A stretch of 64,000 nucleotides of DNA from Purpureocillium takamizusanense (Eukaryota; Ascomycota; Sordariomycetes; Hypocreales; Ophiocordycipitaceae): contig NC_063079.1 in assembly GCF_022605165.1 (NCBI RefSeq), forward strand, positions 196,001 through 260,000, read 5' to 3'. Within the stretch, counting starts at the first letter, position 1, and the number at the start of each line of letters is the position of its first letter. Positions 5,027 through 64,000 of the stretch are shown here, piece after piece. Position numbers and translations under genes: made by a program. A model generated the notes under the pieces. That model made no database searches, had not been told where the DNA came from, and saw only the letters and a program-made list of their open reading frames with translations.

Positions 5027-6211
5027 ATGGAGAACGTGCCTTTGGTAGGCAAAGAGGTAGAGGCTCCGCCTGACTCGACACATTGTCTACAACAAGAAAA
5101 GGCAAGCCAGCGGCGAACGATCGTCCCTCAGACGAACCCCGAGCCTAAAACCAATGGAATGGCGTATATGGATACTAACGTTAATAAGCAAATCTTCGTA
5201 GATCATTCGTGCTCCACTCGACTATCTTCTTGATCACCCAGGCAAAGATATGAGGGGGAAGATGATATCAGCCTTCAATCAATGGCTCCGAGTTCCTAAT
5301 GAGCAGCTCGAAACTATCAAATCTATTGTTATGCTACTGCACAATGCGTCTCTGCTGTAAGTACGGTCTATACGAATCGACAGGTAATGGGCTGTGGTCC
5401 CTGATTCCCACTCTAGACTGGACGATATCCAAGACTCCTCGAAACTCCGTCGTGGAGTACCCGTCGCTCATAGCATCTTCGGAATTGCTCCGACCATCAA
5501 CTCTGCCAACTATGCATACTTTCTGGCTCAGCAAGAAGTACTGAAACTAGGAAGCCCACGAGCGTTTGAGATATTCACCGAAGAACTGCTGAACTTGCAT
5601 CGTGGACAGGGCATGGACATTTACTGGAGAGATGCGTCTATCTGCCCGACCGAGGAAGACTATTTTACCATGGTCTCAAACAAAACAGGCGGACTCTTCA
5701 GGCTGGCTATCAAATTGATGCAGTTGATGAGCAACACTGGCCGGTAAGGGACTACCCAGAGAAGGGCGACGTAAAAAGCCGTCTAACCACAGGGAACCAT
5801 AACAGAGACTACGTTCCCCTAGTCGACCTGTTGGGGGTTATGTTCCAGGTTCGGGACGATTATCTAAACTTGCAGAGCGACGCATATGCGAAAAACAAGG
5901 GATTTGGCGAGGACTTGACCGAAGGGAAGTTTTCCTACCCTATTATCTGCAGCATCCAATCGAACCCGACAAGTATCCAGCTATCTAGCATCCTAAAGCA
6001 GCGGACGATGGATGAAGACGTCAAATTACTCGCGGTGGGGTACATTGAGTCCAGCGGTGCATTCGAGAAATGTCGACAAAAACTCGCAGAGCTGGCTGCT
6101 AAGGCGAGAGAAATGGTACCGAACACTGGCTGCGATGCAGTAGAAGACGTCAAGTTACTTAACAACATGCTTTACATGATTGGGCTTGATAGTTGCGGCG
6201 TACCGTCTTGA
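5027..6211 (+). CDS. Geranylgeranyl diphosphate synthase
   Basis: Class I trans-prenyl diphosphate synthase making GGPP. Supported exons are 5202-5356, 5417-5743 and 5806-6211. The introns between them (60 and 62 nt) have clean GTAAG/AG borders. The third exon opens with the first Asp-rich motif [12 protein letters not shown], and the second motif region is [15 protein letters not shown]. The block [15 protein letters not shown] is typical of fungal GGPP synthases. The 5' exon is less sure: ATG 5027 gives [10 protein letters not shown], and an intron ending at TAG 5201 (from GT at 5057 or 5045, both in phase) links it to [10 protein letters not shown]. An in-frame stop right before 5202 confirms that an intron ends there. 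The position between UbiA and PKS indicates a dedicated C20 donor supply. Confidence 0.9.
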
Positions 6212-11200: not shown

Positions 11201-14200
11201 CTGGATTGATACTGGTCTGGAGGTGAAGGCCCTAGTTGGTCATAGCTTCGGCCAGTTAACGGCCCTCTGCGTCGCCGGCGTGCTCGACGTGAGAGACGCC
11301 TTGAAGCTTATCTCAGGCCGCGCACTCTTGATTCAGAACAAATGGAGTGCCGAACCGGGCCGCATGCTCAGCGTCGATGCGGATGCGGCGACTGTGGAGG
11401 GCATCATAGGATCCATGTTGGACGGGGAAAAGGTCGAGATTGCCTGCCTTAATGCCCCGTCCAACCTCGTGGTAGCGGGCACCGAAGCAGCCATCGCCAA
11501 ATTTGAGAAGGCAGCTCACTCCAGCGACATCAATGTCAGACAACTCCAGGTCACGCATGCGTTCCATTCGAATTTGGTGGACTGCATCATGCATGACTAC
11601 CTTCAGATTATCCAGGATCTGCCCCTGAAGAATCCCATCATCCCCATCGAGCCCTGCTCAAAGTCCGCCGACGCCTGGGCCAATATCACCCCTGATTTAA
11701 TTGCGAGACAGTCCCGCGATCCTGTCTATTTTACCGAGGCCATACTTAGAATCGAGCAACGGCTGGGCCCATGTGTCTGGCTTGAGGCTGGAGCTGGTTC
11801 TACCGGAGTCACCATGGCTCGGCGTGCGTTGAATAGTTCTCGGACGCCGGCCTCGTCGTCCCATTCCTTCCACTCGGTACAGCTTCACGGTCCAGACCCA
11901 ATGGCATCCCTAAGCAACACGACTGTTGGACTCTGGAAAGCGGGTGTCAAAGTACAACACTGGTTGTACCATGCCTGTCAGAGACGTTGTTTTGTGCCGT
12001 TGGAACTGCCTCCGTATCAATTCGAAAATTCGGGACCCTGTTCTGTGGAGGATCATGAGGAGTCTGAACGCGGAGGTCGGGACTTATCAATCCCGGAGGC
12101 TCCAACGATGGTTTCCTTGGTTGGCCCGCGTGATCCCAATGCACAGGCAGTCGAGTTCTCTATCAACCAACACAGCCACGAATACTCTACTCTCCTACAA
12201 GGAAGGACCATGTTCGGCCAGGCCGTGGCGCCACCTTCGGTCTGGACGGAATCGGCTGCTCGCGCCCTTCGTCAGTTGCCGATCTACGCGTCAGCTGCCG
12301 GTCCGTCTCATGCGCCTGTGGAGGTAGGACAGGTGAAACTGCATGCACCCTTTGGCATAAATATTCGAAAACGGCTACGATTAACATTGCGAAAAATTAC
12401 AAGTTCGAGTTGGGGCTTCGATGTGGAAAGCTACTCTGCCGATGGCGACACAGACAACGTATGCGAACTACAAGCATCAGGAACGGTCAGGTGGCAGGAA
12501 GTAGAACGTCCCGAACTGGCGCCTCATCGACCATTCCTCCGCATTCTTCACGATCGATGTCAAGAGATCCGCGAGGATCGCAGTGCCTCGACTGTGCAAG
12601 GCGCGTTTGTGAGGAGCGCCGTGGGCCCGGCGATGTACTACGATACCAGGTACTTGGCAATTCATTCCATTACATCAAACGGTCTCGAGGCTGTCGGGGA
12701 GGTTACTACACCTGCCTTCGTGACTGAATGCTCTGGGACGGCAGTGTGCGACGTACCACTTCTCGACAACTTCTTTGTCGTCTCGGAGATCCAGGCTCCC
12801 AGTCTCGGTAGGCTCGCGCCTAATCAAATGTATGTCTGCACCGGCTTTGACGCTATTGTCCCGCGGGCCCATCCCGAGGGTCCGGGGAGCGATTCAGACG
12901 GACCTTGGACGGTTCTATCCAGACTCACTCGGGACGAAGGGACCGTTTTGTGCGACATCTTTGTTTTCAGTGCACGCCACAAAGGTTTATTCCTAGCAAT
13001 TCTAGGTGCAAAACTCACGCCGGTGTCGATTGATACATGGAGAGAAACGCTGGGTGCGGTGGACTACGAACATGTCGGAGGCAAGGCGGCGCTGGGCTCT
13101 CCATCCGAAACGCCCTTCTCGGCAACTCCAATTTCCTCCGTATCGAGTGACCATGCCATTGGAACAAAAGCACCGAACACTGGGGATGATATGAGCCCCA
13201 ATCCGTTCACAGAGCAGACGAAGCCGGTCATGAATTCGCGCCTGGACACTGAAAGTTGTTCCAACCCCGATCCTGTGGGACTTGATAATCCTAGCGACAC
13301 TTTGGCGCCGCCTGTCGAGCAGCTTTCGTCAGCAACTGGCTTTCATATGTCCAATCACGGTCAGCACGACATGGATTTGTCCAAACTGCTCACCGATCAT
13401 CTGAACTGCACCGGAGCAATTCCTCCCAATGAGCCGTTAGGGACATTCGGACTGGATTCGCTAGTTGCCATACAGCTCCGGTCAGATATGGCAAAAGCGT
13501 TTGGGAACGTACCCGATCTCAAAAAGATTGATGAAAATTCCACTTATTCAGACCTCTTGCGCATGGTCTCCCGCCATGGACTAGCTAAGGGGTTAGAATC
13601 GAACGCTCGACCGGGATCATGTGTCAAGAATAAGCAAAACTTGGCTGGAGCCGGTCAGCAAAGCCACGTCTCCAACTTGGGAAGCACTGCTTCCTTGCAA
13701 GGGCCAGTTCTATTCGCGCAGACTGCTCTGGAGTTTTGCCACACCAAGGAAGAGACCAGCCGGTTTGTCCACAACGCTGGATTTGCGGATTTCTACGACG
13801 CGGCTTATCACAAGCAGGTGTCTCTGGTGCTGGCCTACATCTTGGAGGCTTTTAGCGCCTTAGGATGTGATCTCAAAATCTTGCAAGAAGGGGCGCCGTT
13901 GTCGCGCGTTCGTCACGCCCCAAAGCATCAAAAATTGGTGTCTCGATTCCACCAGATTTTGGAAGACGCAGGCCTGGTCTCTCTCTCTAATGGTCAAGCC
14001 CTTGGATGCCGAACAGCCGTACCAATACCACGAGATAGATCCGCGGCAGATCTGTACAGCGAAATTTTGGCTGAGTACCCACGTTTCCAACCGGAGCATC
14101 GCCTGCTCAACATCACTGGCTCCCGCCTAGCAGACTGCCTTTCCGGTCGAGTGGACCCACTACGGTTGCTGTTCCAGGACAAGACCTCCGTTCAGCTTCT

Positions 14201-14861
14201 GGAGGACGTATATACAAGCTCCCCTATGTTTGCGATGGGAAACAAAATGCTTGGAGAGTTCGTTAGCCGACTCCTCTCGAATCGTCAGTACTATAATTGC
14301 ACCGAGAGGCTTCGGGTGCTCGAAGTTGGGGCGGGCACCGGCGGAACAACACAAACGGTCGTTGAGCAACTGCTAACATGTAACGCCAATTTTACTTACA
14401 CGTTCACCGACGTCTCAATAGCCCTCGTATCGAGCGCGAAAAAGAAGTTTACGGCGCTATACGGACAGCAGACCCCTCAGGTCGACATGGATTTCACAGT
14501 CTTGGACATCGAGAAGACACCACCAGAGAGCATGCATCAGTCGTACGACCTGATTATCGCAGCGAACTGCGTTCACGCTACGGCAAGCCTGCGGCAGTCA
14601 TGCTCGAATTTGGCCAAACTACTCCGAAACGAGACCGGCATACTGTGTCTTCTGGAACTAACACGGCCCCTGGGCTGGCTGGACTGCGTATTTGGCTTCT
14701 TGGATGGTTGGTGGCAGTTCAAGGATGGCCGACAATACCCCTTGGTTGAGGAGCAAGCGTGGAAGTCGGTACTCATGGACTCTGGTTTTCACCATGTCGA
14801 CTGGACTGAGGACGGTTCACAAGAGTCACAGCATCTGCGCTTGATCGCGGCTTGGCGCTAA
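8250..14861 (+). CDS. Non-reducing polyketide synthase SAT-KS-AT-PT-ACP-CMeT, no release domain
   Basis: Two exons, 8250-8915 and 8967-14861 (51-nt intron, GTCAGT..AACAG), giving 2186 aa. SAT: Cys139 in GLCVG and His267 in GRFH. KS from about 393: Cys531 in DTACSSSG, with EAHGTGT and KGNIGH. AT: Ser982 in GHSFG. PT: about 1280-1590. ACP: Ser1720 in GLDSLVA. CMeT: LEVGAGTGGTT at about 2008-2018. The protein stops right after CMeT (ending LIAAWR), so it lacks the TE or reductase common in methylating NR-PKSs. In the PT domain the expected 'GH' catalytic His position reads LLQGRTMFG (Arg1302), while Asp1489 (PLLDNFF) is present. Expected product class: a C-methylated orsellinate-like acid. Release must be spontaneous, hydrolase-assisted or coupled to a downstream enzyme. 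Confidence 0.95.
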
Positions 14862-16030
14862 ATCGGGCAGCGAATTTATTTAGGGAGTCGAATCGATAGA
14901 TTCATTCGATGCTAGAAGAAAATACATTGCTTTACTATTTACTATTAACTTAAATCAAGCAGGTATTATATTATCTATAGTGACTATATTTATATGAGTT
15001 ATATAGTTCCCTACTATATTATTTATCTATTATATTACGTCTCAATTCGCTCTATATAGCTTATAGTTGGGTTCCGGTTATCTATACGCCCGGTAGGCCT
15101 AACCACACTTAAATTAGGTCCTTATTTAGCTTAAAGTAAGAGCTACGTAAGCTTTTCTAGTTTCCTATTGCTATATTAAACTATATCCTAAATCTAGACT
15201 GCTATATAAACGCGTTATAAAACACTATAGCGCTCTGCGCCGATAATACCCGTTCCGACTAAGATAGTAGCATTAATCGTAGCCTCGCGAGCGGCTAACT
15301 CTATATTCACTCCTAGGAGTAACTACTTATCTGCATCTGTAAAATTGCGAGTTTGTCCTATAGCCTAATGCAAATAGCATTACGGAGCACTTATAGACGC
15401 GGCATAGCACTCTAGGAGATATACGGTCGAGAGAGACAAAGAGCGGACATTAAGGAAAAGGGAAGGAGAGGGTAAAGTGCAGCCGCCTAATAGCGAATGT
15501 AGATGGTTTTGAAGAACAAGCTTGCCTTCGCTATCTTAACGAACTAGTAGAAATCTATGCCTCTTAATCGATTGATCGATGCACTCGGTGACTAGTCTTA
15601 TCCGATATCGTAGTAGGCCCAAGTCTCGTGAGATATTAAACGGGCGCTCGCAGGATACGAGGGTAAGTATTGAGCAACTATAATAAAGAGCATCTAAATG
15701 CTTTTATAATTACCCTTCCAGATCTAACTAATAAGCGGACATCTAAGCAGCAACTAGAATATATGAGCTATTCTATGATAATTGAGCTATTCTATAATTG
15801 ACTGCCCTTTCTTTACTAGAAACAAGTAAGGGAGCAAGATTAGATCGGTTTAGAATATCCAGCCGCTAGAAGGAGCATAAGCCTTCGAAGTTACGAGATT
15901 GACACTCAGCAACTATTTCGTTTCATATGGCGGGTCAAAATAAACAGTTTGATAAACCTCTCTGTCGGTAGTGCAGATGAAGGAAGAACCGAAATTGAGG
16001 AATGCATCAGCATCACGATGTATTGGCCCG
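14862..16030. repeat. AT-rich, RIP-like degenerate tract
   Basis: From about 14,880 to 15,960 the sequence is strongly enriched in TA/AT steps (runs such as TATATTATTTATCTATTATA) with stops in every frame, unlike both flanks. This looks like repeat-induced point mutation of a former transposon, but no terminal repeats or transposase frame are recognisable. It separates the PKS from the DMATS gene. Confidence 0.5.
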
Positions 16031-17352
16031 CTAAAACTCCTGTGTCAGCAGTACTGTATCGTCGTCAAATGTAGCTTTGATTATAACGTACAAAGCGCTC
16101 TCGATGATCTTCCTATAAGATCCATCCTCCCCCCAAGGCCAACCGAAGTGGCTATAATTTTGTTCGTAATTTCGGATGATGGTATCGTCGTCCGGGGCGT
16201 AGTTTTGCGCTAGTACGTAGACTTTCACGATGGGGTTGCTGTTCCCCGGCTTCATCTCGTAGGTGATATACAAGCGATGCTGCATGTTCATGGGGCTGTA
16301 GCCTGTAACGGGCTTCTCCCACTCCTCGTCATCAATGGGCTTGGGCTCGTTGAGTAAAAGATGCCATATCTCCCGCAACTTCGATAATCCTTCCAAAGCG
16401 ACCGGATCTTTTAGCCGGCCATTCAGCGTCACATAGTCGCGTACCGTCTGGAAAGAGTTGCTCATGACGTGAACGTAGATTTTGACTCGTGCTGACGGCA
16501 GCATGCTTTCGGGGAGGCAATCAATGCCAACCTGCTCAACAGATCCGACACTTTGCTTCTCGGCGAGGAATCTAATAGGCTCCAGTCAGTCTCTGTTCGT
16601 ATTGGCTGCATGTGGCGGTAGGGTAGCCTGGGTAGCAAGACATACTGCTCCAGCATGTCGACAGCCGTCGAGTTCTCGAATCTTTCGAGGGTGCGAAGAA
16701 CTTGAAAAGTGTATTGACATGACGGAAGCCCAGTCTCGGCCTCCTTGGTTTTGGGATTGAAATAAACCTTCATGGCCTGGGACGGGCCCTCCAGATCGAA
16801 GGCTATGAAACACGAATACAATCGCGGCTGTTTGTTGGGAAGCTGTATGCGTGCTTCGCCATTGCTACTCGCCAGGTTCCGTTGGAAATACTCGAGCACC
16901 TTGGCTTGTATCTGCCGAGAGCCTTCAAGGGTTGGGTGGAAGGCAGTGATGAAGGCTTCGATCCAACCTGGCCAGACGCCAAGATGGCTGACGAGAGCGG
17001 CGAGCAACCGCTGTGAGGGGCCAAGTGCTGCGGGGTCGGCTGCGGTGCCGCTAAGGATATCGAGTGGCTCGAAGGCGTAGCGAAGCTTGGCCACACCAGA
17101 GCCGCTCAGGTTGATGCTGGGCTGCAGGGGGAAGCCACTGAACGTCAACATGCAGGGGATCTGAGTGCCAGACCCAGAAGGATGGGGCCCGAGATTGGGA
17201 AGGACAAATTCCTGCAAAAAGCGCAGCTGTGCCTCTTGGTCCGAGGCCGAGTACACTCCGCACGATTTGAGTAAGCTGGACATCATGGGAATGCAGCGCC
17301 GATTCCAATACGACAAGTCAGTTGCTGACTGGTCGACTGTGTTGCCGGGCAT
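16031..17352 (-). CDS. DMATS-type (ABBA fold) aromatic prenyltransferase
   Basis: Two exons on the minus strand, 17352-16646 and 16571-16031. The 74-nt intron starts with GTATGT and ends TTAG, joining ...DMLEQ to FLAEKQ. The product is 415 aa, near the family's 420-460. Recognisable blocks are FLQEFVLPNLGPHPSG near the N-terminus, RLYSCFIAFDLEG and MKVYFNPKTKEAETG in the middle, and ARVKIYVHVMSNSF then YVTLNGRL near the C-terminus, in the order expected for fungal aromatic/indole prenyltransferases. It is soluble, with no membrane helices. It would add a second, probably shorter prenyl group to an aromatic or other nucleophile, or act in an unrelated pathway. The RIP-like tract lies between it and the PKS. 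Confidence 0.88.
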
Positions 17353-19002
17353 GATGCCAGTAGGTTCACTAGCAATATCTTAGTCTTGAGCTGAAGGCAT
17401 AGCCAGTACTGGTGTCGGGCTAAGGAACGTAGATGGGTGACAAACTTTAGCTTCATTTCGACTTGAATGGATGTATCAGAATGAATACGTGTCAGGTCCG
17501 GAGTGTTAGTTTCTGAGCGGCTAAGTTGTAGGCGCTCATCAGCTTTAATACTTGTGTTGAAAGCGTGTATTGAGCTTGCCCGTGTGTGTGAAAGGGGCAA
17601 CCGCTTCTACTTATCCTCACACCCGCCACAGGACTAGTGCACTAATATATAGCTACCTCAAGACCCCTGCATTCCAACAACTTGTGAGGTGAAATCGCAC
17701 GTTCACACCGCGGACCAAGGTAGGTCGATACGTTCACGGGTCCCGACCGGGTCGGGGGGCGGGCCAAACCATGATTGTCAACGAAAATGGCGCAGGGGCA
17801 ACAGAACTGACTTGGCCGGGCGGCATAAATCGAGTTGAGCGGCTCTGCAAGGAGCGACGTTGTCCGTGCCAACCGAACCAGTGAGGTACCTACCGACATG
17901 TAGAGTGTTGGCGCGCCCTATGCTCAGCGATCTATTCATAGATGGATGCATAGGGTGCGTCTGGTGGTCGCAAACGTCCTAGCCATAGGTACGTCACATG
18001 CCAGCAATGGACTATCTGCGCCAGGCGCGGCTGTCGCGGTGCAACTGTAGGTGCCCAACGCTACAGACCATGAGTAAGGCTCTGAAAGCTGATGGCCTGG
18101 ATAACTTGACCGGGAGGATTGACGATCCAACCATGTGTGGCGGCAACCTGAATGGTGCGATTGGCACATATGACGGCTAGATATTAAACGTGACACTACA
18201 TAAGACTGGGCTGTTGAGCACGGCGGGCATCATTAGCACAGCATCAAGCTATGGGATTAAGTATATTCGGCCTTGTCGTTGCGGCAGCGACCGCTTGGCT
18301 CGCGTCGTGCGTTATCGATGTGATGGTCTCGATTCCCCACGAGGACGAAGATCTACGACGGGATGTCATCGTCACTCCCGTAAGCAACCGCATCGAACAA
18401 GATGTCCTGCAAGACAGTCCTTGTTAATATACTCAGGGTAGCGGCGCAACTACAAAAGACGGGTGCATGTTCGATTCGACTTAGCGACCATAGCAGAAGA
18501 GGACGCGGATAGGAAGCTCTGAAAACGGATGGTTTTCCGTTCATCTCAGACGGGACGTGTATAAGCGGCTGTGAGCACATGAGGTCAGGGGTGACATACA
18601 GAGGGCACTCAGATCGTCGGTGGTGCATAAATGTATACGTTGCAATTGGTTGGATGAATTCCATGACATCGCTCAACCAAATCCCGTTGCATCGGTGGGG
18701 TCCCACCCCATGTGAACATCAAGCCGCTCCCTGTTGGTGTACTTCAGCAGCGCCACGGCTCGGTCCGATTCATGGACCTTCGCAAGCCTGTTCGGAAAAG
18801 AAAGTTGTATTCCGACCCTAGTTTATATCTGCCTTTGTCCGGTGGAGGGAATTGCGTGCGTGATAAATATTGATTCCTGTCCTTCAAGCCTCAAAGTTTT
18901 GCATACCAATGTTTAAATCTTACCAATCTAGAGTCAGTTATTCTCACCACGAGGCTATTTCAGCAAGTATAAAAAGTCTTCCAGCAATATACAAGTCCCA
19001 AA
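17353..19002. other. Intergenic, 1.65 kb, divergent promoters
   Basis: Lies between the divergent DMATS and SDR genes. Frames inside are short and without coding character. Contains a TATAAAAAG just before the SDR start. Confidence 0.5.
18968..18976 (+). promoter_or_regulatory. Possible TATA box upstream of SDR 1
   Basis: TATAAAAAG starts 35 nt before ATG 19003. If it is functional, the 5' leader would be very short. Confidence 0.3.
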
Positions 19003-20893: not shown

Positions 20894-21777
20894 ATGTCCC
20901 CTCATGAGATCGAATGCGGTGCCCTGGCAGGGAAGACCTGCCTCGTAACAGGAGGAGCGGTTGGCTTGGGGAGAGCTATAGCCGCAGCCTTTCTCCATGC
21001 TGGTGCCAACGTGGTCATTTGCGACGTCAACGACCACGGCTTGAAGCAGACGTCAGCCGAGCTGGGAGGCGCAGGTAACCTGACCGCCATAACGGCTGAC
21101 ATTACGGACCCTAGCGCAATGCGACACATATTCGATGAGATCGCCCGCAAGTTTCCATCATTGGATATTTTGATCAACAACGCCGCGATCATGGACCGTT
21201 TTGAGCCAGTTGGCGACCTCGAACTCGAACTGTGGAACAGAGTCCTTGCCGTGAACCTTACGGCACCGCTCCTACTCAGCAAATTGGCAGTTTGCGCAAT
21301 GTTGCAGCAGCCTGAGCCCAAAGGGTGCATTATCAACATTGCGTCCGGAGCAGCCAAGGCTGGTTGGCTAGCAGGTAAGCCACTGCTTCCAGAGCCTTGA
21401 TTCAGGTGGTTGTAAACTCGCGCATACGGACGCTAATCGGCTCGTCATGGTAAGGCGCGGCATATACCACGAGCAAGCACGGTTTGATTGGATTGACGAA
21501 AAGCACTGCGGCCTTCTACGGGCCAAAGGGTATCCGGTGCAACGCGTTGATGCTAGGTGTTCTGGGCGGGTCTACAATGAGCGATCGTTCGTGGCCCGAA
21601 TACCACACCGAAGGCCGCCAGAAGGTAGCCGAGCTACTTGCCGGCCATGCGCCACAGTTATGTGACGTGAGGGATGTGGCAGCGTTGTGTGTGTCCTTGT
21701 GCTGTCGACCCGGATGGAATATTGTCAATGGTGCCTCGATTGCTGCGGACCATGGATGGACGAGCATGGTAGGCTAA
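20894..21777 (+). CDS. Classical short-chain dehydrogenase/reductase
   Basis: Two exons, 20894-21374 and 21455-21777 (80-nt intron with CTAAT branch-like site), giving 267 aa, the usual classical SDR length. Cofactor motif TGGAVGLG, then DILINNAA, AVNLTAP with the active-site Asn, Ser in NIASGAA, and YTTSKHG completed across the intron give a full Asn-Ser-Tyr-Lys set. It is soluble. The substrate is not deducible. Same strand as the SDRs on either side, so co-regulation is plausible. Confidence 0.9.
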
Positions 21778-49748: not shown

Positions 49749-50980
49749 ATGAAGTTCAAAGAGATTCGTTGTCGTGGCACACCCTACGATGCAAGTGCCG
49801 ACATGACCTCCTTGTCACTTACTGACTCAACGCTAATCACAAGTAGATCGGGCTCGCCCATGGTGAAGCGGCCAAGGTGGAGATTGAGCGCGGGCTCGCA
49901 TTCTACGCCGGCCTCTTCTGGGAGGCAAGCAAGCTCCAATGGCCTCAAGTCCGGGAGCTGGCGCGAGACTTTGATGGCACCATAGCAGCCCGATGGCCAC
50001 GCTACTACGAAGAGATGCGAGGTTAGGGGGCCAAAGCACGACCCTGATGTTCTCTTCTGCGGAGCTGACCAGCGTACTGTAAGTGTAGGCATTGCCGAGG
50101 GAGCCAGCCGTGATATTCTCGACATTGTTGCACTAAACGTGCGGTCTGAAATAGTGTTCGGGCAGTTTAGCGATGGCTGTACCAGCGCGTACTGCAGGGG
50201 CGATGCCTACTCGTACATGGGACAGAACTGGGATGTATGCAGTGAAACCTTGATCGCGTGCGACAACGGGGAAGGATCGCACAGCTAACGTGGCCGCCGC
50301 AGTGGAAGAAAGCACAAGGAGCAAATCTGATCCAGCTCACCATTCTCCAGTCTGATATCCCGGCAATCAAGATGATCACCGAGGCGGGAATAATTGGCAA
50401 GATTGGGCTCAACGCTGCAGGCGTCGGCGTATGTTTCAACGCCATCCGCGCCAAAGGGCTCGACAAGACGCGGCTACCCGTCCACCTCGGCCTGCGGCTA
50501 GCACTGGAAAGCACCTCGGTCGAGCAAGCGTTGAGGAGGCTCCAGGGCGTCGGCATGGCGAGTTCAGCGCACTTCCTGATCGGCGACGTGGACACGGCGG
50601 TTGGTCTCGAGTTTACATCTAGCACATTCGCCCAGGTACCGGTCAACGACGTCGGCTTTATCGTGCATGCGAATCACATGCTGCGCGCGCACCAGGGCAT
50701 CTACGAGCCGGAGTGGCTGGAAGACTCCCCGCGGCGCGTCGATACGATGGGAAGGAATATCCTCGCGGCCGGGGTCCTGTCTTGGGGAGGATTCTGCGCA
50801 TTGTTTGAGGACGAAACCGGGTGGCCCTGCTCGATCAATAGGTCAGCGGAGGGCAAGAGCGAGTTCCCAACGTTGTTCAACATATGCATCGACTTGGGGA
50901 AACGAAGGGCGGTTGTGAGAGGAGGCCGGCCGACTTCAGGCGACAGTGGCCTGGTACTGTCTTTTGACGCGGGGGGATGA
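49749..50980 (+). CDS. Peptidase C45 / isopenicillin-N acyltransferase-like protein
   Basis: Four exons: 49749-49790, 49847-50021, 50089-50234 and 50303-50980, giving 346 aa, similar to the roughly 357 aa of PenDE. MKFKEIRCRGTPYD joins IGLAHGEAAKVEIERG. The nucleophile is Cys103 in DGCTS, the self-cleavage/catalytic Cys of the Ntn-hydrolase fold, followed by SYMGQNWDWKK across intron 3. The first intron uses a GC donor (GCAAGT..GTAG), an uncommon but known GC-AG class; introns 2 and 3 are GT-AG. No other beta-lactam genes are near, so penicillin synthesis is not implied. Fungal homologues act as acyltransferases or amidohydrolases with mostly unknown substrates. No C-terminal peroxisomal signal is evident (ends SFDAGG). 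Confidence 0.9.
49791..49846 (+). other. GC-AG intron
   Basis: A 56-nt intron with 5' GCAAGT and 3' AGTAG, containing a CTGAC/CTAAT branch-like segment. The join is in phase and restores the conserved GTPYD-IGLAHG stretch. Confidence 0.75.
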
Positions 50981-53272: not shown

Positions 53273-55195
53273 TTACGCACTCTTGATGACAATTCTTGTT
53301 GTTTCCCAGCCAGGTCGCCGCTTGATCCGGGCCCCAAGACCTGCTCCGTCGTTGACAGGCTTGCAGGATGCTGCTGTCATCTTCGCCCCGCCCATCTTGA
53401 CGTCGTCGAAGCCCATCCCCAGGGGCTCCAGTTCCACGCGCAATAGTACCAACGCCATGAATCCCAGAATCCCTTCAAAAGCCATGACTCTCCCGGGGCA
53501 GAGGTGCTTACCTCCGCCAAATGGCAAGAACGCAGCTTTGCGAGTGCGCTCTACCCGCGATTGGTGATGTGAAGTCTGTGCCTTGGAGTCCTGTGCTTCG
53601 GGCAGGAATCGCTCCGCCTTGAACACGTCAGCGTCCGGGCCCCAGATCCCCATGTCTCCATGACCGACGCCTGCCGGCAATTGAACATCATATCCCTCCC
53701 TCAGCAAGTATGTTTTCCCGTCTGCTGCTGTGAGAGACATGTCCGCTGTGATGCGGCGCATGCTGACTGCATGATTGATCATCCGTAGTGTCTCGCGGTA
53801 ACAGCTCGTCATGAGGGGCAGCTGGTCTTCAAGTCGACTAACATCCAATGTCGCGGTTTTGGGTTTGGCCTTTGCCGAGTCGCCAGACGCTGCTGTGGGT
53901 TCGAATACAAGAGCGCCTTCGAGCTCAGCGCGCAGCCGTGCGAATAATTCGGGCCGGCTCAACACGAAAGTGAGCAGCCAGAAGAACGTCGGCGTGGCAT
54001 TGGTGGTGGCAATCACAGCTTGTAGGGTCTCTATCTTGGCGATGTCCTCCCCGTCAAATCCGTGCTGCCGAAAAGTCTCCGCCCTCTGTTTGATCAAGAC
54101 GGACGTTGTGGGGTCGATAGCATCGCATTTCTCGCTATAGTACTTCGTCATGGCCTCGTGCAGTCGCTTCCTCGCACGATAACCACTGGGCATCGTGATT
54201 GAGGGGAAAAGCGATTTGAGAAATGACGGAAGGGCATCCTCGAACTCCCTTACAGAGGCCACGTGCGGTCAGCGAACATGTTTCAGCGCCGAGGATACTT
54301 GCCCTAACGTGTGGTTTGTCACTCACCAGAGAACAGAAATTAAACTGGGGTCCTCCGAGTAAGGATTGCAGTCGCCATAAAGAGCGTTCGTCATTGACAG
54401 CGTCATTATATCTCTGGACCATAGATACAGATTCTTCACCTCCAGTGTTTGGTTGGTCAGCGTTTCTCTGCCCGCATTTGAGGGATCAGTCGTGTACGCG
54501 TCGTTGTCAATCATATCTAGCTTGCGTGAAATGTTGTCCAAAAAGCGACGAGTCATGGTCCTTAGAGGTTGGGTCTTAAACCCTAGGCTATAGGAAGTGG
54601 TCAGGTCTGGTAGAAGGCTGTCGTCTTCAATGACTTTTGTAAGACTCTTCTTGGAGAGGTTGAATGCCATCGTAGCAAGGTTGATGATGAAGGGCTCAAA
54701 AATCGCTGACTTTGATCGCAGTACCGCGTGGATCATAGTCGGGTCGAAAATTGCGTAGGCTTTACCGTTTAACAAAGGTAGGGTCGCCAGGGAGACGCTC
54801 GGGTTGTCCTTGCTGCGCGATGGATTTGTGTCAGTATATGGCAAGTCCTTGCACGAATCTTGGCTACAGCTACACGTCTGGAATGGTGCCCTTGTGCATA
54901 CGCACCGAAGCATGAGGTGAAATTCTCCTTGAAACCTCATGACGTTGATGATATGTCCCAGAAAGGGTATTTTCGGGCGCAGGAGCGGGGGCTCCCGCGG
55001 ATCGTGCGGACATTGCAGAGTATGAAGCCAGGCGCCTACGACCACGATGGCGACCAAACAGACGATGCCCGTCGAAGACGTAGTCGTGCGTATATGTGAG
55101 CCCCAAGTACTGCGGACGAGGTTTCCACTTGGCGTCCCCGTGATCAGCGTCACCGCCGCATCGATCGGGTGCCAGAGTAAGGACGTGCTATTCAT
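53273..55195 (-). CDS. Cytochrome P450, CYP7/CYP8-like I-helix
   Basis: Three minus-strand exons: 55195-54906, 54812-54327 and 54248-53273, giving 583 aa, long for a P450 because of an extended N-terminus and a loop near SGDSAKAKPK. N-terminal anchor TGIVCLVAIVVVGAWLH; ExxR as YRETLR; heme-binding FGGGKHLCPGR with Cys509. The I-helix lacks the usual AGxDTT: it reads ATTNATPTFFW, an Asn/Pro pattern like sterol 7-alpha-hydroxylases and prostacyclin synthase. This can mean rearrangement or unusual oxygen chemistry. It is divergent from the hydrolase at 56.9 kb, so both could belong to one pathway. Substrate unknown. Confidence 0.9.
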
Positions 55196-56907: not shown

Positions 56908-57825
56908 ATGAGACAGGACGTCAGTTTCGACAGCCAAGGCCTAAGGCTAGCTGGACATCTCTACCTTCCAGACCAGCTGACGCCTTCTGAGCGCCTCCCA
57001 GCAATCGTGGTCAGCCATCCTGGAGCAGGCGTGAAGGAACAAACTGCCGGAATCTACGCCAATCGTCTTCACAACGAAGGGTTCATCACACTTACCTTCG
57101 ATTGCGCCTACCATGGAGAGAGTGAAGGCACGCCACGGGGGCTAGAAGACCCTGCACACCGCGTGGAAGACATCAAGAACGCCGTGTCATTCCTCGCCTG
57201 TCACGAGAGAGTCGATCCGGACCGCATCGCGTTATTGGGGATCTGCGCCTCCGGTGGCTACGCCATCACCGCAACGGCGACCGACATCCGCATCAAGGCC
57301 GTTGCGACCGTCAGTGGTGTGGACCTGGGAAGCTTCATGCGAAAGGGCTTCAACGGAAAACAGGACCCTTCCGTCCTGAAGAGTCAGCTAGAACAGGCCG
57401 CACGCGCCAGAACTGCCGCCGCAGGTGGCGCTGACGCAGGAGGCTTCTCCTTGTTTCCTCCCGACGAGGCGACTGCCAAAGGTTGGGGCAAGTACGCATA
57501 TGAGGCCTGGAGCTACTACACTACACCACGCGGCTGCCATCCCCGCTCGGCGAAAGTCATGCCCTGGATCAGCATCGACAAACTCGCCAGCTTCTTTGGC
57601 TTTGGTGTGATTGATCAAATCGGCCCAAAGCCCGTTCTGATGATTGTGGGAGCCGAAGCGGAGACGAAGTGGATGGCAGAGGAGGCGATTCCGAACGCCA
57701 AAGAGCCCAAGGAGCTGTACCAGATCGATGGCGCGAGCCATGTTGACCTGTATGACATCGATGAGCATGTGACGAAAGCTACCTCACGGCTGGTAAATTA
57801 CTATAAACACTGGCTTGGGGTTTGA
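56908..57825 (+). CDS. Alpha/beta-hydrolase, dienelactone-hydrolase / polyketide-transferase-like
   Basis: Single exon of 305 aa from ATG 56908 (MRQDVSFDSQGLRLAGHLYL); upstream in-frame codons lack an ATG. Alpha/beta-hydrolase landmarks: VVSHPGAGVKEQ (oxyanion-loop region), FDCAYHGESEG, the nucleophile elbow LLGICASGGYA (Cys or Ser as nucleophile), an Asp/Glu after VLMIVGAEAE, and His in GASHVDLYD. The GxC elbow resembles dienelactone hydrolases and cluster-borne acyl/polyketide transferases. It lies divergent to the P450 and convergent with a flavin monooxygenase 60 nt away. It could hydrolyse or transfer an acyl group in that local pathway. A trans-acting release of the PKS product 42 kb away is possible but speculative. 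Confidence 0.85.
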   Translation: MRQDVSFDSQGLRLAGHLYLPDQLTPSERLPAIVVSHPGAGVKEQTAGIYANRLHNEGFITLTFDCAYHGESEGTPRGLEDPAHRVEDIKNAVSFLACHERVDPDRIALLGICASGGYAITATATDIRIKAVATVSGVDLGSFMRKGFNGKQDPSVLKSQLEQAARARTAAAGGADAGGFSLFPPDEATAKGWGKYAYEAWSYYTTPRGCHPRSAKVMPWISIDKLASFFGFGVIDQIGPKPVLMIVGAEAETKWMAEEAIPNAKEPKELYQIDGASHVDLYDIDEHVTKATSRLVNYYKHWLGV

Positions 57826-57884: not shown

Positions 57885-59282
57885 TCATGTCCCGCCTTGC
57901 TCACCCTGACCCTTCGTCTTGTTGTGCCGCATGTATTCGTACAACTGAGCCCGACCACTTTCGATATGCTCGTCTAAGTCGAGGTTCCACAGCCACTGAA
58001 AGCGCTCATCCCACGACTGCCTAAGTTTCTCTCCATCATTCCCTATGCCTTTGTGGCAGAGACAAAGAAGCTCGGCATTTTCCTTGCTGCTCGTGACGAC
58101 CTTCTGGCTGCGGGGCCGACGAACACTATCGTATGCCTTGAAGGCCGCCACCACGTCCTCCATAGTTTCCACCGCATCATCAGCCAGAAGTTCAGCGAGC
58201 ACATACGCATCTTCTATGGCTTGGCCGGCCCCAGCGCCCTGGTGGGGAGTCGAAGCATGTGCTGCGTCGCCTAGTATTGCGACTCGGGATCGTGAGTAGC
58301 TCGACACCGGCGGGTGCTCAAAGATCGCCCACTGCGACGTGTCGGACACGTGCTAGGAATAGTCAGCCTGTTGGCGTTTCTCGTTTCCTACTTCATATTT
58401 TTGACAGCGCGGCAGCCAACGCACCTTCATCAGCTCATTGACGTAGGAGCCCATGTGGCCCATGTCCCTGTTGAGATCCTCCTTTGCTGCAGGACGAACC
58501 CAACCATCGCTGTCCCACGTCTTCGCATCCAATTTATACATGCCAAAGTTGAGCTTCTTTCCGTTCATAATCGGGTAGGTAATCGCGTAACATCCGTTTC
58601 CAATGTACCATGTCGCAACTCTGGCTCTATGGTTGCCCACAGCACTCACCGCGTCTTGCATGCCCAGGACTGCACGATAGCAATACATCCCACTATACGT
58701 TGGTCTCGTCTTTTCCACCTCTTCAGGAAGCATGAACTCTTTCACCTTGGATTTGATGCCGTCACATCCAACGACAATATCGGCGTCGACGCTTGTCCCA
58801 TCTTCAAAGGACAACCGCACCCCATCAACATTTTCTTGAAGGGCAACCAACCTTTTGTCGAAGTGGGCTATATCTTGAGGGATCATCTCCACCAATGCCG
58901 CAAGGAAGTCGGCTCGTCGAAGCGTAGTCTGTCCTGAGGGTAGAGCTTTCAGATCCATCATGACCTGACCCGAAGCTTCCCCCGAGGCCCAAACGACTTC
59001 GAACCATGTGTCCCGAAATCGTTCGAATCCGGGGCTATCCGCATTCGTCGTGACAAGTGAATCGTATGCTACTCGTAGCATGGGATCTATCAGAGGTAGT
59101 GCACGGTGCGCGGCCGGTCCAATAGACAGGCCCAGGCCAGTCTCACGAAAGGCAGTGGCGGCTTCATAGATTTGCACGGGGACGTTGCGTCGAAGCAGTC
59201 CGATTGCCAGCGCAAGGCCCCCAATTCCGCCACCAATAATGGCGACTGTGAAATGCTTTTGCGACTGTATTTTGCTCCCCAT
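57885..59282 (-). CDS. FAD-dependent monooxygenase, salicylate-hydroxylase-like
   Basis: Two minus-strand exons, 59282-58425 and 58352-57885 (72-nt intron), giving 441 aa from the ATG at 59282; an upstream in-frame ATG at 59354 is an alternative. Group A flavin monooxygenase motifs: AIIGGGIGGLALAIG (ADP-binding), VGCDGIKSKVKEF (DG motif) and ILGDAAHASTPHQGAGAGQA (FAD ribityl motif). No C-terminal anchor, so probably soluble. Known relatives hydroxylate or decarboxylate phenols such as salicylate. It lies 0.7 kb from the RiPP-like precursor on the same strand and may modify its product or serve the hydrolase/P450 set. Confidence 0.92.
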
Positions 59283-59997
59283 TGCATCGTTCAGCACCAA
59301 GGCACGCTCTGATGTGATGAGGGAATCGGCCCTCTTGGATGCCCGACGTCTCATCAGCAGCGGATTGTCATGGGACTTGGGGGCGGGCTAGCCCTCCCAG
59401 CCCGAGATCTACAATGAAACCCCGCACGTCAGATCAATTTCCTTGACCCTGCAGCCATCTCAGTATAGGACTATCACATGACCAATGTACTGCCGGTACG
59501 CGCTGATGCTGTACTTGACGCGATGGCCCGCTAGTACAGTCCGGGTGGAACTTGTCATAGGAGTTTGAGGGGACCTGAGGACATGCATGTCGCGTGACAA
59601 GGCCTCAGACGTTTTGCACCTTGTAATAGGCGTCGTTTTGAATCCCGAAGTGTTGTAAACGAGTGTTGCCCACCATGTACGGATTCCTATTATTGGCTTT
59701 GTGATCGGACGGGGGCAGCGCGGGAATTTCTCCCCTCGACAGCGACCAGCGGGCCCTTTCATTGAACGTCCAAATCGCCGGATCTCGTAAGAGGTGGTGC
59801 GAAATTGTTTGGTGATTTCACGGTCTTGACATATCTAGAATAAGAGACAGGTACGATGCTGCGCTGCAACACTTGGTAGAGGAGAATTACGGGCGAGACG
59901 AGAGATTCGGCTTGATTCCCTGGACTTCTATCTGAAGAAACTGAGAAGCCACCTAAATCATAACCTCAACGCAATCGACGTCTGCCTCCCTTGTAGC
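59283..59997. other. Intergenic between monooxygenase and precursor gene
   Basis: 0.7 kb. Promoter of the monooxygenase and terminator of the precursor gene. No other feature. Confidence 0.5.
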
Positions 59998-60237
59998 TCA
60001 GTAATTGGCCGCTGCTTTAATGACAATCGAGTCCTTGGCCAAGTCCTTCACCTCGTCGCGCTTGTAGTTGGCGGCTGCTTTGATGACAATGGAGTTCTTG
60101 GCGAGGTCGTGCGCCTCGCTGCGCTTGTAGTATGATGCAGCTTTGATGACAATTGAATCCTTTGTAAGGTCCTGCACCGGGGCGGAGAACACGGTAAGGG
60201 CCTGCAAGGCGAGGAGAGACAGGATGCTGGTTTTCAT
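59998..60237 (-). CDS. Kex2-processed repeat precursor peptide (candidate dikaritin-type RiPP precursor)
   Basis: Single exon of 79 aa. A signal peptide, MKTSILSLLALQALTVFSA, is followed by three tandem 21-residue units beginning at Asp23, Asp44 and Asp65. Consensus DL(T/A)K(D/N)SIVIKAA(S/A)(Y/N)Y. Units one and two end in Lys-Arg (38-39 and 59-60), the Kex2 cleavage signal; unit three ends the protein at Tyr79 without KR. Linkers SEAH and DEVK precede units two and three. This is the architecture of KEP/dikaritin precursors (ustiloxin, phomopsin, asperipin), in which UstYa-type oxidases cross-link a Tyr-containing core. A UstYa-like gene lies 0.8 kb away, divergent. The core sequence does not match known members that I recall. 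Confidence 0.85.
   Translation of the reverse strand: MKTSILSLLALQALTVFSAPVQDLTKDSIVIKAASYYKRSEAHDLAKNSIVIKAAANYKRDEVKDLAKDSIVIKAAANY
60046..60171 (-). repeat. 63-nt coding tandem repeat
   Basis: The 21-codon unit is repeated three times at DNA level with modest divergence, mainly at codon positions for the variable linker and the residue before Tyr. The span given covers the repeat junctions. Units start at nucleotides coding Asp23, Asp44 and Asp65. Confidence 0.75.
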
Positions 60238-61041
60238 GGCTACTTGAAGTGTCGTTGGTTTATAGCTGTATTTGGCAATGGAGTGGGTAATACTGTCGAC
60301 GTCCAAGTAGAAGCGAACAAGAGTGCTCCCGTTCTTAATCATTCGTGAAGGTGGCTACTTATAACGTCGAGTGAAAGCTACTCAACACTTGCCCTTTTCG
60401 GCAGGTGTTATGCTCGGCCCACGCGTGGCACTTTGGCCTGTGATGACACTGGAGACCGGAGCCTCACAATGCACGACTAAGTAACCGAGGAGCGAGCGGT
60501 TGTGCACCCCCAGCCGCAGGGTCTATCAGGATCTTACTGTCACTGGCTGACTGTGTGATCTGCTGTAGCACTCGACTTGTCCGGTACCAACTGCATCGAT
60601 CGCCGCAGACCGTCTTTACCCCGACAAAGGTTCCGTCTTTTCATTCGGAATACCCAATCATGATGGCTACTTACGTTGCAACAGCTCCCGTCTCATCATC
60701 CAAGAGAGGCCAATTTGGAATCAACTTGCGAAGGCTGCATCCCGAAATCTCGGATACCTAAGAGAAAAGGCCAGTCCGTTGCCTTGGCTCTGCTGATTGG
60801 GCTCGCTTTTTATCGCCGTATGCACAGCTACACCAGATTAGGCTGGTGGAAGGGTGGTTCTGTCGCCAAGCGCGATTCTCCCGTTCCTAGCCGCAACTCT
60901 TGACATAAAGCATTCAGCCTGTCCAGTCTGCCAATTGCGAGCGACCACGAACAGCCAGAGATAGAACACGTCCGGTCGAGAACACGATACAAGAGACAGC
61001 ACCGGGACCGGTGCATCACTCTACTCTAGCCCATCACAACC
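60238..61041. promoter_or_regulatory. Divergent region between precursor and UstYa-like genes, with a possible tiny gene
   Basis: 0.8 kb. A TTATAAGT at 60357-60364 on the minus strand is a TATA candidate for the precursor. A frame from ATG 60661 (MMATYVATAPVSSSKRGQFG) stops at 60759-60761. An overlapping frame continues (RKGQSVALALLIGLAFYRRM) to 60903. They could be one small spliced gene, but no clear donor/acceptor pair was found. Confidence 0.35.
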
Positions 61042-62061
61042 ATGTGGCAGTCAACCTACTCAAAGTACAAAAGGCTTGAGCAAGATGAGTCGAATCAACA
61101 CGCCGATAAACTATCCACGACGTCGCGTTACCGTCGACGACGATCTTGTGGGATAATAGCGCTAGTGTGTTCCAACCTGCTCTCGCTTCTCGCGCTCGCT
61201 ATCATAGTTCTCGGGCATGGACGCAGTAATCTCGACACAAGTATCTCAGAAAAATGTAATTCTGCCAGTCTAACAGCTCTTGAATACGCTGACTGACAAT
61301 GGCAATAGCACCGGGATGGGAGGCAGTGAAGTTTGAGCCTAGAAAATACGCCGGTGGGTTTCGACAGCAGAACAAATGGCGAGGGGGGCCCGGAGAGCAG
61401 TCTGATGCTATTGACATGGCTTGGCACGAGATTGAAGTCGGGGCTGGAGGTGTACGACTCACCGAGGAGGACGTCCGGGCCTTCAATTTCAGCGGCTCGC
61501 CTAGTAACCCGTTGCACAAGATACCCGACAGACACGGAGGGGGCTACGTCGCGATGCTGGAGGTGTTTCACCTTTTACACTGCCTGGTAAGTTTTTTGTT
61601 GCAATAAAGATCAGGTTGCTGACTATGCAAGAACACACTACGCATGGGACTGTTTTACAATTATGAGAGATACAAGATTCTCGACGACGGAGTACCAACC
61701 GAAAATTTGTATTCTCATTTCGGTACGCATTGAAGACAGATCAGACAAAGGATGCTTCAATCTCTAACCTATGCCAGATCACTGCGTAGACATGCTGAGG
61801 GAGAGCTTAATGTGCTCCGCGGACACCACGCCGTACATTTTCTACGACCCATTAGACAAACCAAGGCGTCGTGACCCCTTACCAGACTGGTCAGCAACAC
61901 ACACATGTCGAGACTTTGACGCAATCTTGGCATGGAACAAGGAAGGTCCTCGGTCCATACGTTGGAGAGATGTTGGGACCAATCCTGCATGGAACGAGTC
62001 CCTAGAAGGGTCTGATCCGCCATTTCCTCCAGAAGATGACCATAGTCATCATCATGGCTAG
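61042..62061 (+). CDS. UstYa-like (DUF3328) oxidase
   Basis: Four exons: 61042-61255, 61309-61586, 61632-61722 and 61778-62061 (introns 45-55 nt), giving 288 aa. A basic N-terminal tail precedes one membrane helix (GIIALVCSNLLSLLALAIIV), then a lumenal domain with the two hallmark motifs: FHLLHCLN (HxxHC, split by intron 2) and HFDHCVDMLR (after intron 3). Dikaritin-pathway members (UstYa/UstYb) catalyse oxidative cyclisation or desaturation of Kex2-released peptides, and others act in cyclochlorotine-type pathways. A single copy is visible; a second may lie past the window end. The His-rich C-terminus (DDHSHHHG) is unusual but natural-looking. Confidence 0.93.
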
Positions 62062-62925
62062 CCGTTTGCGCCTAGCACTACTCACCGAATCCACCTACTG
62101 TTCTTGTGGGCTTCATAAGCTCCTATTTGGCCACGGCCCTTTTTGACTCTCTGGCACGGCTGGTCTTTTCTTACAGGACTCTAAAGGCGGGTTTGGGCGG
62201 GCGTTCCTGCGTGTTGCTTCCGAATTGAACGGCATCTAGGGACGGACACACGTTTGCATGCTGCTCGCGGTATCTATCCATTTGTTCAAATGCAGAGGCT
62301 ATGAACGCCAGAAATTTGAAGCACGGTGCGTAGCACGCGAGAAGTTGTGCGGCCCCGCAACCACCTGCAGCGCGTCGTCGACAAAGGTGCGGCCACTTGA
62401 CACCACAGCCAGGGCTGAGTATCTATCTTACCATAGCATCACCTTGCCATGGCAACGGGAAATACAAACTGGCTACGCAGGCAAACATTTGAGGGAATGA
62501 TGTCGTTGGCTGGCTCAAGACCAGGGACCTGACGTTGGTCTTGTGTTGTTGGCTCCCTGAACATGTCGCGAATCATCGTGAGTCGTCCACGCATATAACA
62601 TAAGCATAACCTCGGTATTTCCTTACTTCTGCCAGAACAATCTTCCGTCTGGGGCGGGGATTCGAGTGTATAAATCTGGCGAATACGGACTTTGCCAAGG
62701 TGACGTGGCATCGCATCCGTGCCCAGGTTTCAGTCGGACCAATCACTCGATTTCACGTACGTACGGGCGAATGCTCGTACCAATAGACCTCGCGCCGATT
62801 GTGCACGATCTTACGATCTCAGCGAGTAGTCTGTGAGTATCGTCGCATCGCATTGCTACGGGATTCGGCCATCGAGTCGACGCGCTTATGACTGCCCCGC
62901 CGACATTGTCGAAGACATCGCTGCC
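62062..62925. other. Intergenic between UstYa-like gene and FMO
   Basis: 0.86 kb. Frames at 62258-62500 and 62439-62711 have no recognisable content. Promoter of the FMO expected. Confidence 0.5.
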
Positions 62926-64000
62926 ATGGAGCATATCGACACTGTTATAGTGGGAGCAGGTGAGTGTAAACCTGCCGGGTTACAGCTAGAGTGCTAACTT
63001 GACGAGGGTGGCATGGGCTGGCAATGGCAAAAGCCCACGTCGAAGCGCGTCCAGACGCTACTTTGTTGGTATTTGATACGGCAGCGACTGTGGGCGGTGT
63101 CTGGGCTGCGGAAAGACTGTACCCCGGTTTAAAGACAAATAATCTTGTCGGGACCTACGAGTTCTCGGATTTTCCCATGACCTTCGAGCAATTTGGCGTC
63201 AAGCCTGGACAGCATATTCCCGGACAAGTCGTGCACGACTACCTGACCGCATTCGCCAACAATTTCAACCTCATGCCTCGAATGCGGTTGAACCAAAAAG
63301 TACTCTCCGCGGAGCTTCTCAACGACGGCTCATGGCTCCTGAGACTGGTCTCTACAAAGAGTCATGGTGAAGGTCCAGTGCCAGAAACACTCGTCGCTAG
63401 CAAACTGGTCGTTGCCACTGGTCTTACGTCCGAACCTCAATGGCCAGTATTCGAAGGCCGTGAACATTTCAAGAGAGAGCTCTTTCACGCCAAAGAGTTG
63501 AAAGACCGCACCGATAGCATAGAGCGAGCCAAAAGCGTAGTGGTATTGGGCGGGAACAAGTCTGCGTGGGATACGTGCTTCTTCGCTGCAAAGTGTGGTG
63601 CACATGTCCACATGGTCATGAGACCGGGCGGCGGCGGCCCGAGCTGGGTTTGGCCACTTTTCTTCTCGCCCTTCAAAGTCTCCGTCCAGCGATTGGCCTC
63701 GACGCGATTCTTCACCTGGTTCGACCCATGCATCTGGAGCGAAGAGACCGGCTTGATAAGTTGGATTCGCGCTGGTCTTCACAACACCTGTGTTGGACGT
63801 TGGATCGTGTCCAAGTTTTGGAACTGCATCGGGAGCTTCGCCCACAAAGCCCATCGATACGACGATCATCCCGAGACGCGAAAGCTGAAGCCTTGGGTGA
63901 GCCCATTCTGGATGGGGAATTCCCTCAGCATCCATAACTACACGTCCTCTTGGTTTGAGCTTGTCCGACAAGGCCGAATCACTGTGCATATTGCAGACGT
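62926..64000 (+). CDS. Flavin-containing monooxygenase (FMO/BVMO-like), 5' part; truncated by window end
   Basis: Exon 1 is 62926-62959 (MEHIDTVIVGAG). The intron is 62960-63006. Exon 2 runs open from 63007 to the last base, about 342 residues in all. The FAD motif is completed across the intron as VGAGWHGLAMA. TVGGVWAAERLYPGLKTNN, the FMO-fingerprint region and the second Rossmann-like VVVLGGNKSAWDT follow, typical of cluster FMOs and Baeyer-Villiger-like enzymes. No stop occurs before the edge. Same strand as the UstYa-like gene 0.86 kb upstream, so it may oxidise the same peptide product, as FMO UstF1/F2 do in ustiloxin assembly. Confidence 0.9.

What the first reader, a model, noticed from the sequence alone, without database searches (positions are those of the whole stretch)
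57885..64000. Candidate new RiPP locus: repeat precursor, UstYa-like oxidase and two flavin monooxygenases
Seen: a 79-aa secreted precursor with Lys-Arg-bounded repeats, a UstYa-like protein with both His-Cys motifs, an FMO running off the edge, and a group A flavin monooxygenase within 6 kb. Known: dikaritin pathways (ustiloxin, phomopsin, asperipin-2a) pair a Kex2-processed repeat precursor with UstYa/UstYb, and ustiloxin also uses FMOs. Inferred: this is a dikaritin-like pathway with a core based on SIVIKAAxxY, unlike the cores I recall (YAIG/YVIPID/FYYTGY). The cluster probably continues beyond 64 kb.
Basis: partly seen in the sequence, partly recalled or inferred. Interest (0 to 1): 0.88.

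Follow-up and report, generated by a model that had tools for sequence, protein, structure and literature searches.

The report
Fungal repeat peptide beside UstYa oxidase
A fungus carries a small gene for a secreted, three-times-repeated peptide next to an enzyme of the kind that ties such peptides into rings, so it probably makes an undescribed ring-shaped peptide; this is a new example of a known kind of system, and the link between the two genes is not proven.

Summary
On the minus strand (60237-59998) lies a 79-aa protein with a signal-like start and three 14-residue units, L-x-K-[DN]-S-I-V-I-K-A-A-x-x-Y, separated by Lys-Arg. Residues are kept while codons drift (dN/dS 0.07-0.08 in the two unit pairs that gave a ratio). 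A diverging gene, 804 bp between start codons, encodes an intact UstYa protein with both HxxHC motifs. Four precursor relatives were found; one, 37 aa with a single unit, stops at the same Tyr. Most likely this is a Kex2-processed RiPP locus with one UstYa, closest in gene content to asperipin-2a. Two features of the five-gene dikaritin definition, tyrosinase and multiple UstYa, are not met on the contig. FMO1 is salicylate-hydroxylase-like, not the class B type of ustiloxin. Against the pairing: 31 UstYa orthologue clusters (23 Colletotrichum) come without a named precursor hit, and no contig links the two elsewhere, though that check also misses this genome's own pair. KEP genes with a UstYa-family gene nearby are a catalogued class (1758 cases, PMC7329392): a new member of a known kind.

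The parts
59998..60237 (-). Kex2-processed repeat precursor (KEP), 79 aa, three units LxK[DN]SIVIKAAxxY, KR after the first two
60181..60237 (-). signal-peptide-like N-terminus (first 19 residues), judged by eye; no signal-peptide program was available
   Evidence: A-P-V at residues 19-21 is invariant in 5 of 5 family members
60238..61041 (.). 804-bp region between the two start codons, possible shared promoter
   Evidence: sharing is inference
61042..62061 (+). UstYa/DUF3328 oxidase, exons 61042-61255, 61309-61586, 61632-61722, 61778-62061, 288 aa, two HxxHC motifs, His-rich C-terminal tail
62926..64000 (+). FMO2, class B-like flavin monooxygenase, exons 62926-62959 and 63007 onward; ends 760 bp outside the window
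   Evidence: membership in the pathway not shown
57885..59282 (-). FMO1, group A monooxygenase, salicylate hydroxylase/TropB/AfoD/SorC-like, exons 59282-58425 and 58352-57885; probably not a core part
56908..57825 (+). alpha/beta hydrolase (DLH-like), possible neighbour of FMO1 in a separate module

Best explanation
This is a KEP/UstYa RiPP locus. The 79-aa precursor enters the secretory pathway and Kex2 cuts after each Lys-Arg. A carboxypeptidase removes Lys-Arg, so each unit ends at its invariant Tyr. The UstYa protein oxidatively joins that Tyr to an upstream aliphatic side chain, most likely the invariant Ile at unit position 8. That would give a seven-residue ring I-K-A-A-x-x-Y with the invariant Lys inside and a free N-terminal tail. 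FMO2, the isoflavone-reductase-like enzyme and the MFS transporter on the right may tailor and export the product. Shown: the precursor, its repeats and their purifying selection, the adjacency, the intact UstYa motifs, one Kex2-type (P_proprotein) match in the genome, and the Tyr end in a single-unit relative. Inferred: all processing, the cross-link and its position, and the role of every other gene.
For: Repeats far beyond chance; NG86 dN/dS about 0.07 and 0.08 for two of three unit pairs, dS saturated in the third. L1, K3, I8, K9 and Y14 are fixed in 12 of 12 units from five family members, the window's own included. P0075 carries Lys-Arg after its last Tyr and P0076 stops at the Tyr after one unit. 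804 bp between start codons; about 24 UstYa genes in 35.6 Mb, by my grouping of the 35 matches, put a random point within 1 kb of one about 0.2% of the time, more if such genes cluster. A control scan found clear KEPs at 2 of 16 other UstYa loci of this genome and none above noise (best score 31) in 86 kb with no UstYa match. In print, DUF3328 gene counts are highest at the position next to KEP genes, and 65.6% of the repeats of such KEPs carry Tyr against 38.2% of the others (PMC7329392, passages). One P_proprotein match in the genome. The four gene kinds of asperipin-2a (precursor, one UstYa, transporter, isoflavone reductase-like) lie within 10 kb.
Against: The UstYa belongs to a group of 31 protein clusters at E below 1e-60, 23 of them named Colletotrichum, yet no named precursor hit came from those genera in two searches. 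None of the four precursor relatives' contig lengths (4453468, 3058, 1163, 2710) occurs among the 71 UstYa hits; but the window's own contig (1033788) does not occur there either, so the check has low power. In a tree the UstYa group stands apart (support 1.0) and does not join the KEP-linked UstYa genes of L016 and L017, although plain tblastn ranked those two loci first. No tyrosinase, S41 peptidase or second UstYa was matched on the contig. The asperipin-like genes are not adjacent: FMO2 and a DHDPS-family gene lie between, and NmrA and MFS genes are common in fungi (general knowledge).
Confidence: 0.65

Rival explanations
1. The precursor gives linear secreted peptides (signal, antimicrobial or surface-active) and the UstYa next door works on something else; adjacency is accidental.
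For: 6120 of 7878 KEPs in print have no DUF3328 gene among the 15 nearest genes (PMC7329392, passages). Precursor relatives and close UstYa relatives were not found in the same named species apart from this genome. The UstYa group is well conserved in species where no precursor was seen.
Against: 804 bp between start codons, about a 0.2% chance per point (estimate). An invariant Tyr and Ile suit UstYa chemistry. Absence is weak: the searches need shared five-residue words, short genes are often left out of annotations (general knowledge), and only one of the four relatives comes from a named, annotated genome.
Confidence: 0.22
2. UstYa and FMO2 are tailoring enzymes of a small-molecule pathway (for example a chlorination or hydroxylation as in cyclochlorotine), perhaps together with the P450, hydrolase and salicylate-hydroxylase-like FMO1 to the left; the precursor is a bystander.
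For: DUF3328 proteins also hydroxylate and chlorinate in cyclochlorotine clusters (PMC12048977, passage). Several relatives carry that source name. A P450, an AAT-family gene and a hydrolase lie to the left and a meroterpenoid-type cluster at 1.5-17.4 kb.
Against: No PKS, NRPS or prenyltransferase was seen among the 13 of 28 ORFs of 150 residues or more scanned between 17.4 and 56 kb, nor among 10 of 21 to the right; the other ORFs were not scanned. The source names are presumably transferred by similarity.
Confidence: 0.1
3. The open frame is not a gene.
For: It has no Pfam match.
Against: Silent drift with kept residues between units, and homologous frames elsewhere, one of them annotated in Coniochaeta.
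Confidence: 0.02

Closest known systems
asperipin-2a locus (aprA, aprY, aprT, aprR)
   Same: Repeat precursor; a single UstYa-type oxidase; a transporter and an isoflavone-reductase-like gene nearby (PMC6514808, passages).
   Different: Core is unrelated (FYYTGY against SIVIKAAxxY); reductase and transporter lie about 7-9.5 kb from the precursor with other genes between; product unknown.
ustiloxin B / phomopsin loci (dikaritins in the five-gene sense)
   Same: Kex2-type repeat precursor with Tyr and Ile, UstYa-family oxidase; ustiloxin also uses class B FMOs.
   Different: No tyrosinase and no second UstYa matched on the contig; no methyltransferase among the neighbouring ORFs scanned; Tyr ends the unit here, whereas in those cores it is N-terminal (PMC9233826, passage).
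epichloecyclins (GigA) and victorin
   Same: The aromatic residue lies C-terminal to the aliphatic partner (PMC9233826, passages); epichloecyclins are described with a seven-residue ring and a methylated Lys (PMC6514808, passage).
   Different: No core sequence of either was compared here; no methyltransferase was identified nearby; the cross-link is a prediction.

Membership tests
Kex2-processed repeat protein (KEP) | N-terminal signal peptide | tested here: inconclusive
   Hydrophobic N-terminus by eye and by a simple score; no signal-peptide program available
Kex2-processed repeat protein (KEP) | repeated units between Lys-Arg sites | tested here: met
UstYa/DUF3328 (PF11807) | Pfam match above cut-off, with two HxxHC motifs | tested here: met
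dikaritin, five-gene definition of Ding et al. as quoted in PMC12048977 | precursor with leader and repeated cores | tested here: met
dikaritin, five-gene definition | tyrosinase | tested here: not met
   10 tyrosinase matches in the genome, 0 of 10 on contig C12
dikaritin, five-gene definition | multiple DUF3328 proteins | tested here: not met
   35 matches in the genome; the 2 on C12 both lie in this gene
dikaritin, five-gene definition | methyltransferase | tested here: inconclusive
   none among the neighbouring ORFs scanned, but only 13 of 28 to the left and 10 of 21 to the right were scanned; the one is inside the distant PKS
dikaritin, five-gene definition | transporter or peptidase | tested here: met
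   MFS gene, minus strand, about C12:264449-265774; S41 peptidase matches 0 of 2 on C12
asperipin-2a-type locus | precursor, one UstYa, transporter and isoflavone reductase in one cluster | tested here: inconclusive
   all four kinds within 10 kb, with other genes between; joint function not shown
cross-linked cyclic peptide | Tyr-aliphatic side-chain bond | not testable with these tools
   needs LC-MS or an enzyme assay

The most novel reading that the evidence does not exclude
A conserved precursor family in Sordariomycetes encodes a heptapeptide macrocycle closed between Ile8 and the C-terminal Tyr14 around an invariant Lys, made by a single UstYa of a separate subfamily without a tyrosinase, and existing in both multi-unit and single-unit precursor forms. 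It would be a new fungal RiPP type beside asperipins and epichloecyclins.
Probability: 0.3. Interest if true: 0.6.

Novelty: new member of a known kind. Interest (0 to 1): 0.42.

Why it matters
Few precursor-UstYa pairs have been worked out chemically, so a locus with one UstYa, no tyrosinase on its contig and a short conserved core would be a compact test case, with predicted masses given here. Ordinary caveat: a published survey lists 1758 KEP genes with a DUF3328 gene among the 15 nearest genes (PMC7329392, passages), so the locus alone is not surprising.

Tried and rejected
Tried without result: viral-contig scans for the precursor and for UstYa and a genome-contig scan for UstYa, hoping for fungal DNA with neighbours; none. 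A UstYa profile against solved structures gave no credible match (best E 0.033, unrelated molecules). Text searches for core strings gave 0 papers for this precursor and 0 for the two other KEPs. Papers: PMC7329392 was seen as passages, abstract and section list; PMC6339444, PMC9233826, PMC6514808 and PMC12048977 as passages; all others as search listings only. The supplementary table of PMC7329392, which lists the KEPs, could not be read, so this family may be listed there.

Rejected: that the two FMOs form a ustiloxin-like pair (FMO1 is group A). Rejected too: that closeness of this UstYa to KEP-linked paralogues supports the pairing; tblastn suggested it, the tree did not, and tblastn favours genes with long unbroken exons. 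The pattern was mistyped (the Ser codon was left out), so its 26 matches say nothing.

Dropped or limited: the KEP scan needs one unbroken frame and so misses KEPs split by introns; of its hits, 5 of 7 at UstYa loci and 2 of 2 in the control scored 31 or less and were judged noise by eye. The tree used 19 of 23 assembled UstYa pieces (at least 90 residues and score above 25), plus the window's own and six of the 71 homologues. Of those 71, 16 were aligned and 41.
Full report
Where it is. The closest named UstYa relative is from Purpureocillium lilacinum, 80% identical, so a fungus of or near that genus (Ophiocordycipitaceae) is likely; this is an inference.

The precursor. On the minus strand, 60237-59998, is a 79-aa frame with a signal-like start and three units LTKDSIVIKAASYY, LAKNSIVIKAAANY and LAKDSIVIKAAANY at a 21-residue period; the first two are followed by Lys-Arg, the last by the stop codon. 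Three-way identity is 34 of 42 against a maximum of 16 in 200 shuffles. Between pairs of units 4 to 6 of 14 codons differ silently while 1 to 4 residues differ; NG86 gives dN/dS of about 0.07 and 0.08 for two pairs and saturated dS for the third. The peptide sequence of the units is therefore kept by selection. A search of its own genome found no second copy.

Relatives of the precursor. Two searches of about 5.8 billion proteins gave four relatives besides the window's own frame: P0002 from Coniochaeta sp. 2T2.1 (three units), P0003 (two units), P0075 (three units, each followed by Lys-Arg) and P0076 (37 aa, one unit, ending at the Tyr). Across 12 units L1, K3, I8, K9 and Y14 never change. 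The variable stretches lie mostly between Lys-Arg and L1, as expected for linkers. The single-unit form and the units ending at a stop codon suggest that Tyr is the mature C-terminus.

The UstYa gene. It starts 804 bp from the precursor's start codon in the opposite direction. The four-exon model (61042-61255, 61309-61586, 61632-61722, 61778-62061) gives 288 aa with one N-terminal hydrophobic stretch (by eye), Pfam UstYa at E 7.4e-48, and HxxHC motifs at residues 159-163 and 193-197 whose His and Cys are invariant in the 17-sequence alignment. An HHH run lies at or near the C-terminal end of 13 of those 17 sequences. Its 31 relatives at E below 1e-60 comprise 23 clusters named Colletotrichum and 8 from Purpureocillium, Seiridium, Cercophora, Microdochium (2), Lasiosphaeris, Immersiella and Truncatella.

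Neighbours. FMO2 (62926 to C12:260760, 595 aa) matches the FMO-like family over its first part (E 4.9e-12). FMO1 (59282-57885, 441 aa) matches salicylate 1-monooxygenase (E 2.8e-88, below the curated cut-off) and solved structures of salicylate hydroxylase, SorC, AfoD and TropB. Further left are an alpha/beta hydrolase (56908-57825) and a P450 (Pfam match at 53276-54268). To the right, beyond the window, come a DHDPS-family gene, an NmrA/isoflavone-reductase-like gene (C12:263211-264242), an MFS transporter and a Zn2Cys6 regulator. Pfam was run on 13 of 28 ORFs of at least 150 residues between 17.4 and 56 kb and on 10 of 21 right of FMO2, besides the genes named here.

Chance and control. By my grouping of the 35 exon matches the genome has about 24 UstYa genes in 17 loci; a random point then lies within 1 kb of one about 0.2% of the time (clustering of such genes raises it). 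A scan for secreted Lys-Arg repeat frames found clear KEPs at 2 of 16 other UstYa loci (scores 108 and 139), this one at 70, and nothing above 31 in 86 kb with no UstYa match; mononucleotide-shuffled DNA gave 0 in 160 kb. In print, 1758 of 7878 KEP genes have a DUF3328 gene among the 15 nearest genes, with the maximum at the adjacent position (PMC7329392, passages).

Mechanism. Kex2 cutting and C-terminal trimming would free units ending in Tyr; one Kex2-type P_proprotein match is in the genome. UstYa enzymes take part in joining Tyr to other side chains in ustiloxins, phomopsins and asperipin-2a (PMC7329392 and PMC6514808, passages). The aliphatic residues that never vary are Leu1 and Ile8; Ile6 and Val7 do vary. 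Leu1 lies beside the variable linker, so Ile8 with Tyr14 is the likelier pair, which predicts a seven-residue ring with Lys9 inside. Epichloecyclins are described with a seven-residue ring and a methylated Lys (PMC6514808), and victorin closes from a C-terminal Phe to a Leu (PMC9233826); these are likenesses, not tests.

Results against. No named species other than this genome was found with both parts. The contig lengths of the four precursor relatives do not occur among the 71 UstYa hits. That check is weak: the window's own contig (1033788) carries both genes and is listed for the precursor but not for UstYa. It is fairest for the annotated Coniochaeta genome. The UstYa tree places this group apart from the KEP-linked genes of the same genome, against the tblastn ranking. 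No tyrosinase, S41 peptidase or second UstYa was matched on C12.

Verdict. It should not be filed as a dikaritin in the five-gene sense, since two defining features were tested and not met. The pairing of precursor and enzyme needs a gene removal with LC-MS. The core strings were found in no paper of the held library, but the published KEP table could not be read, so novelty is put at a new member of a known kind.

Noticed in passing
L016:2947-7116 (C5 about 575.9-580.1 kb): A second KEP/UstYa locus: 152-aa precursor with six near-identical units SEAQSPD[IV]LYNNQAGWG-K(K)R between two UstYa genes; core strings found in no paper of the held library.
   Followed up: partly
L017:2255-7647 (C14 about 39.3-44.6 kb): A third KEP/UstYa locus: 100-aa precursor with four units of LYPVTWP[SG]K, between two UstYa genes; core string found in no paper of the held library.
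   Followed up: partly
C1:1930691-1933263 (L024): A tyrosinase gene about 1.2 kb from a UstYa gene, a ustiloxin-like pair; no KEP seen there by the simple scan.
   Followed up: no
window 1528-17379: Meroterpenoid-type cluster: Pyr4-like terpene cyclase, UbiA prenyltransferase, polyprenyl synthase, a PKS with SAT and methyltransferase domains, and a DMATS-type prenyltransferase.
   Followed up: no
window 50246-50977: Acyl-CoA:6-aminopenicillanic acid acyltransferase (AAT) family gene.
   Followed up: no
C9:2635-9613 and 21193-21456 (L020, L021): About four UstYa genes in the first 10 kb of contig C9 and one more at 21 kb, perhaps subtelomeric.
   Followed up: no
window 62017-62061: C-terminal PPFPPEDDHSHHHG tail of the UstYa; an HHH run near the end is seen in 13 of 17 aligned sequences, possibly an extra metal site.
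   Followed up: no
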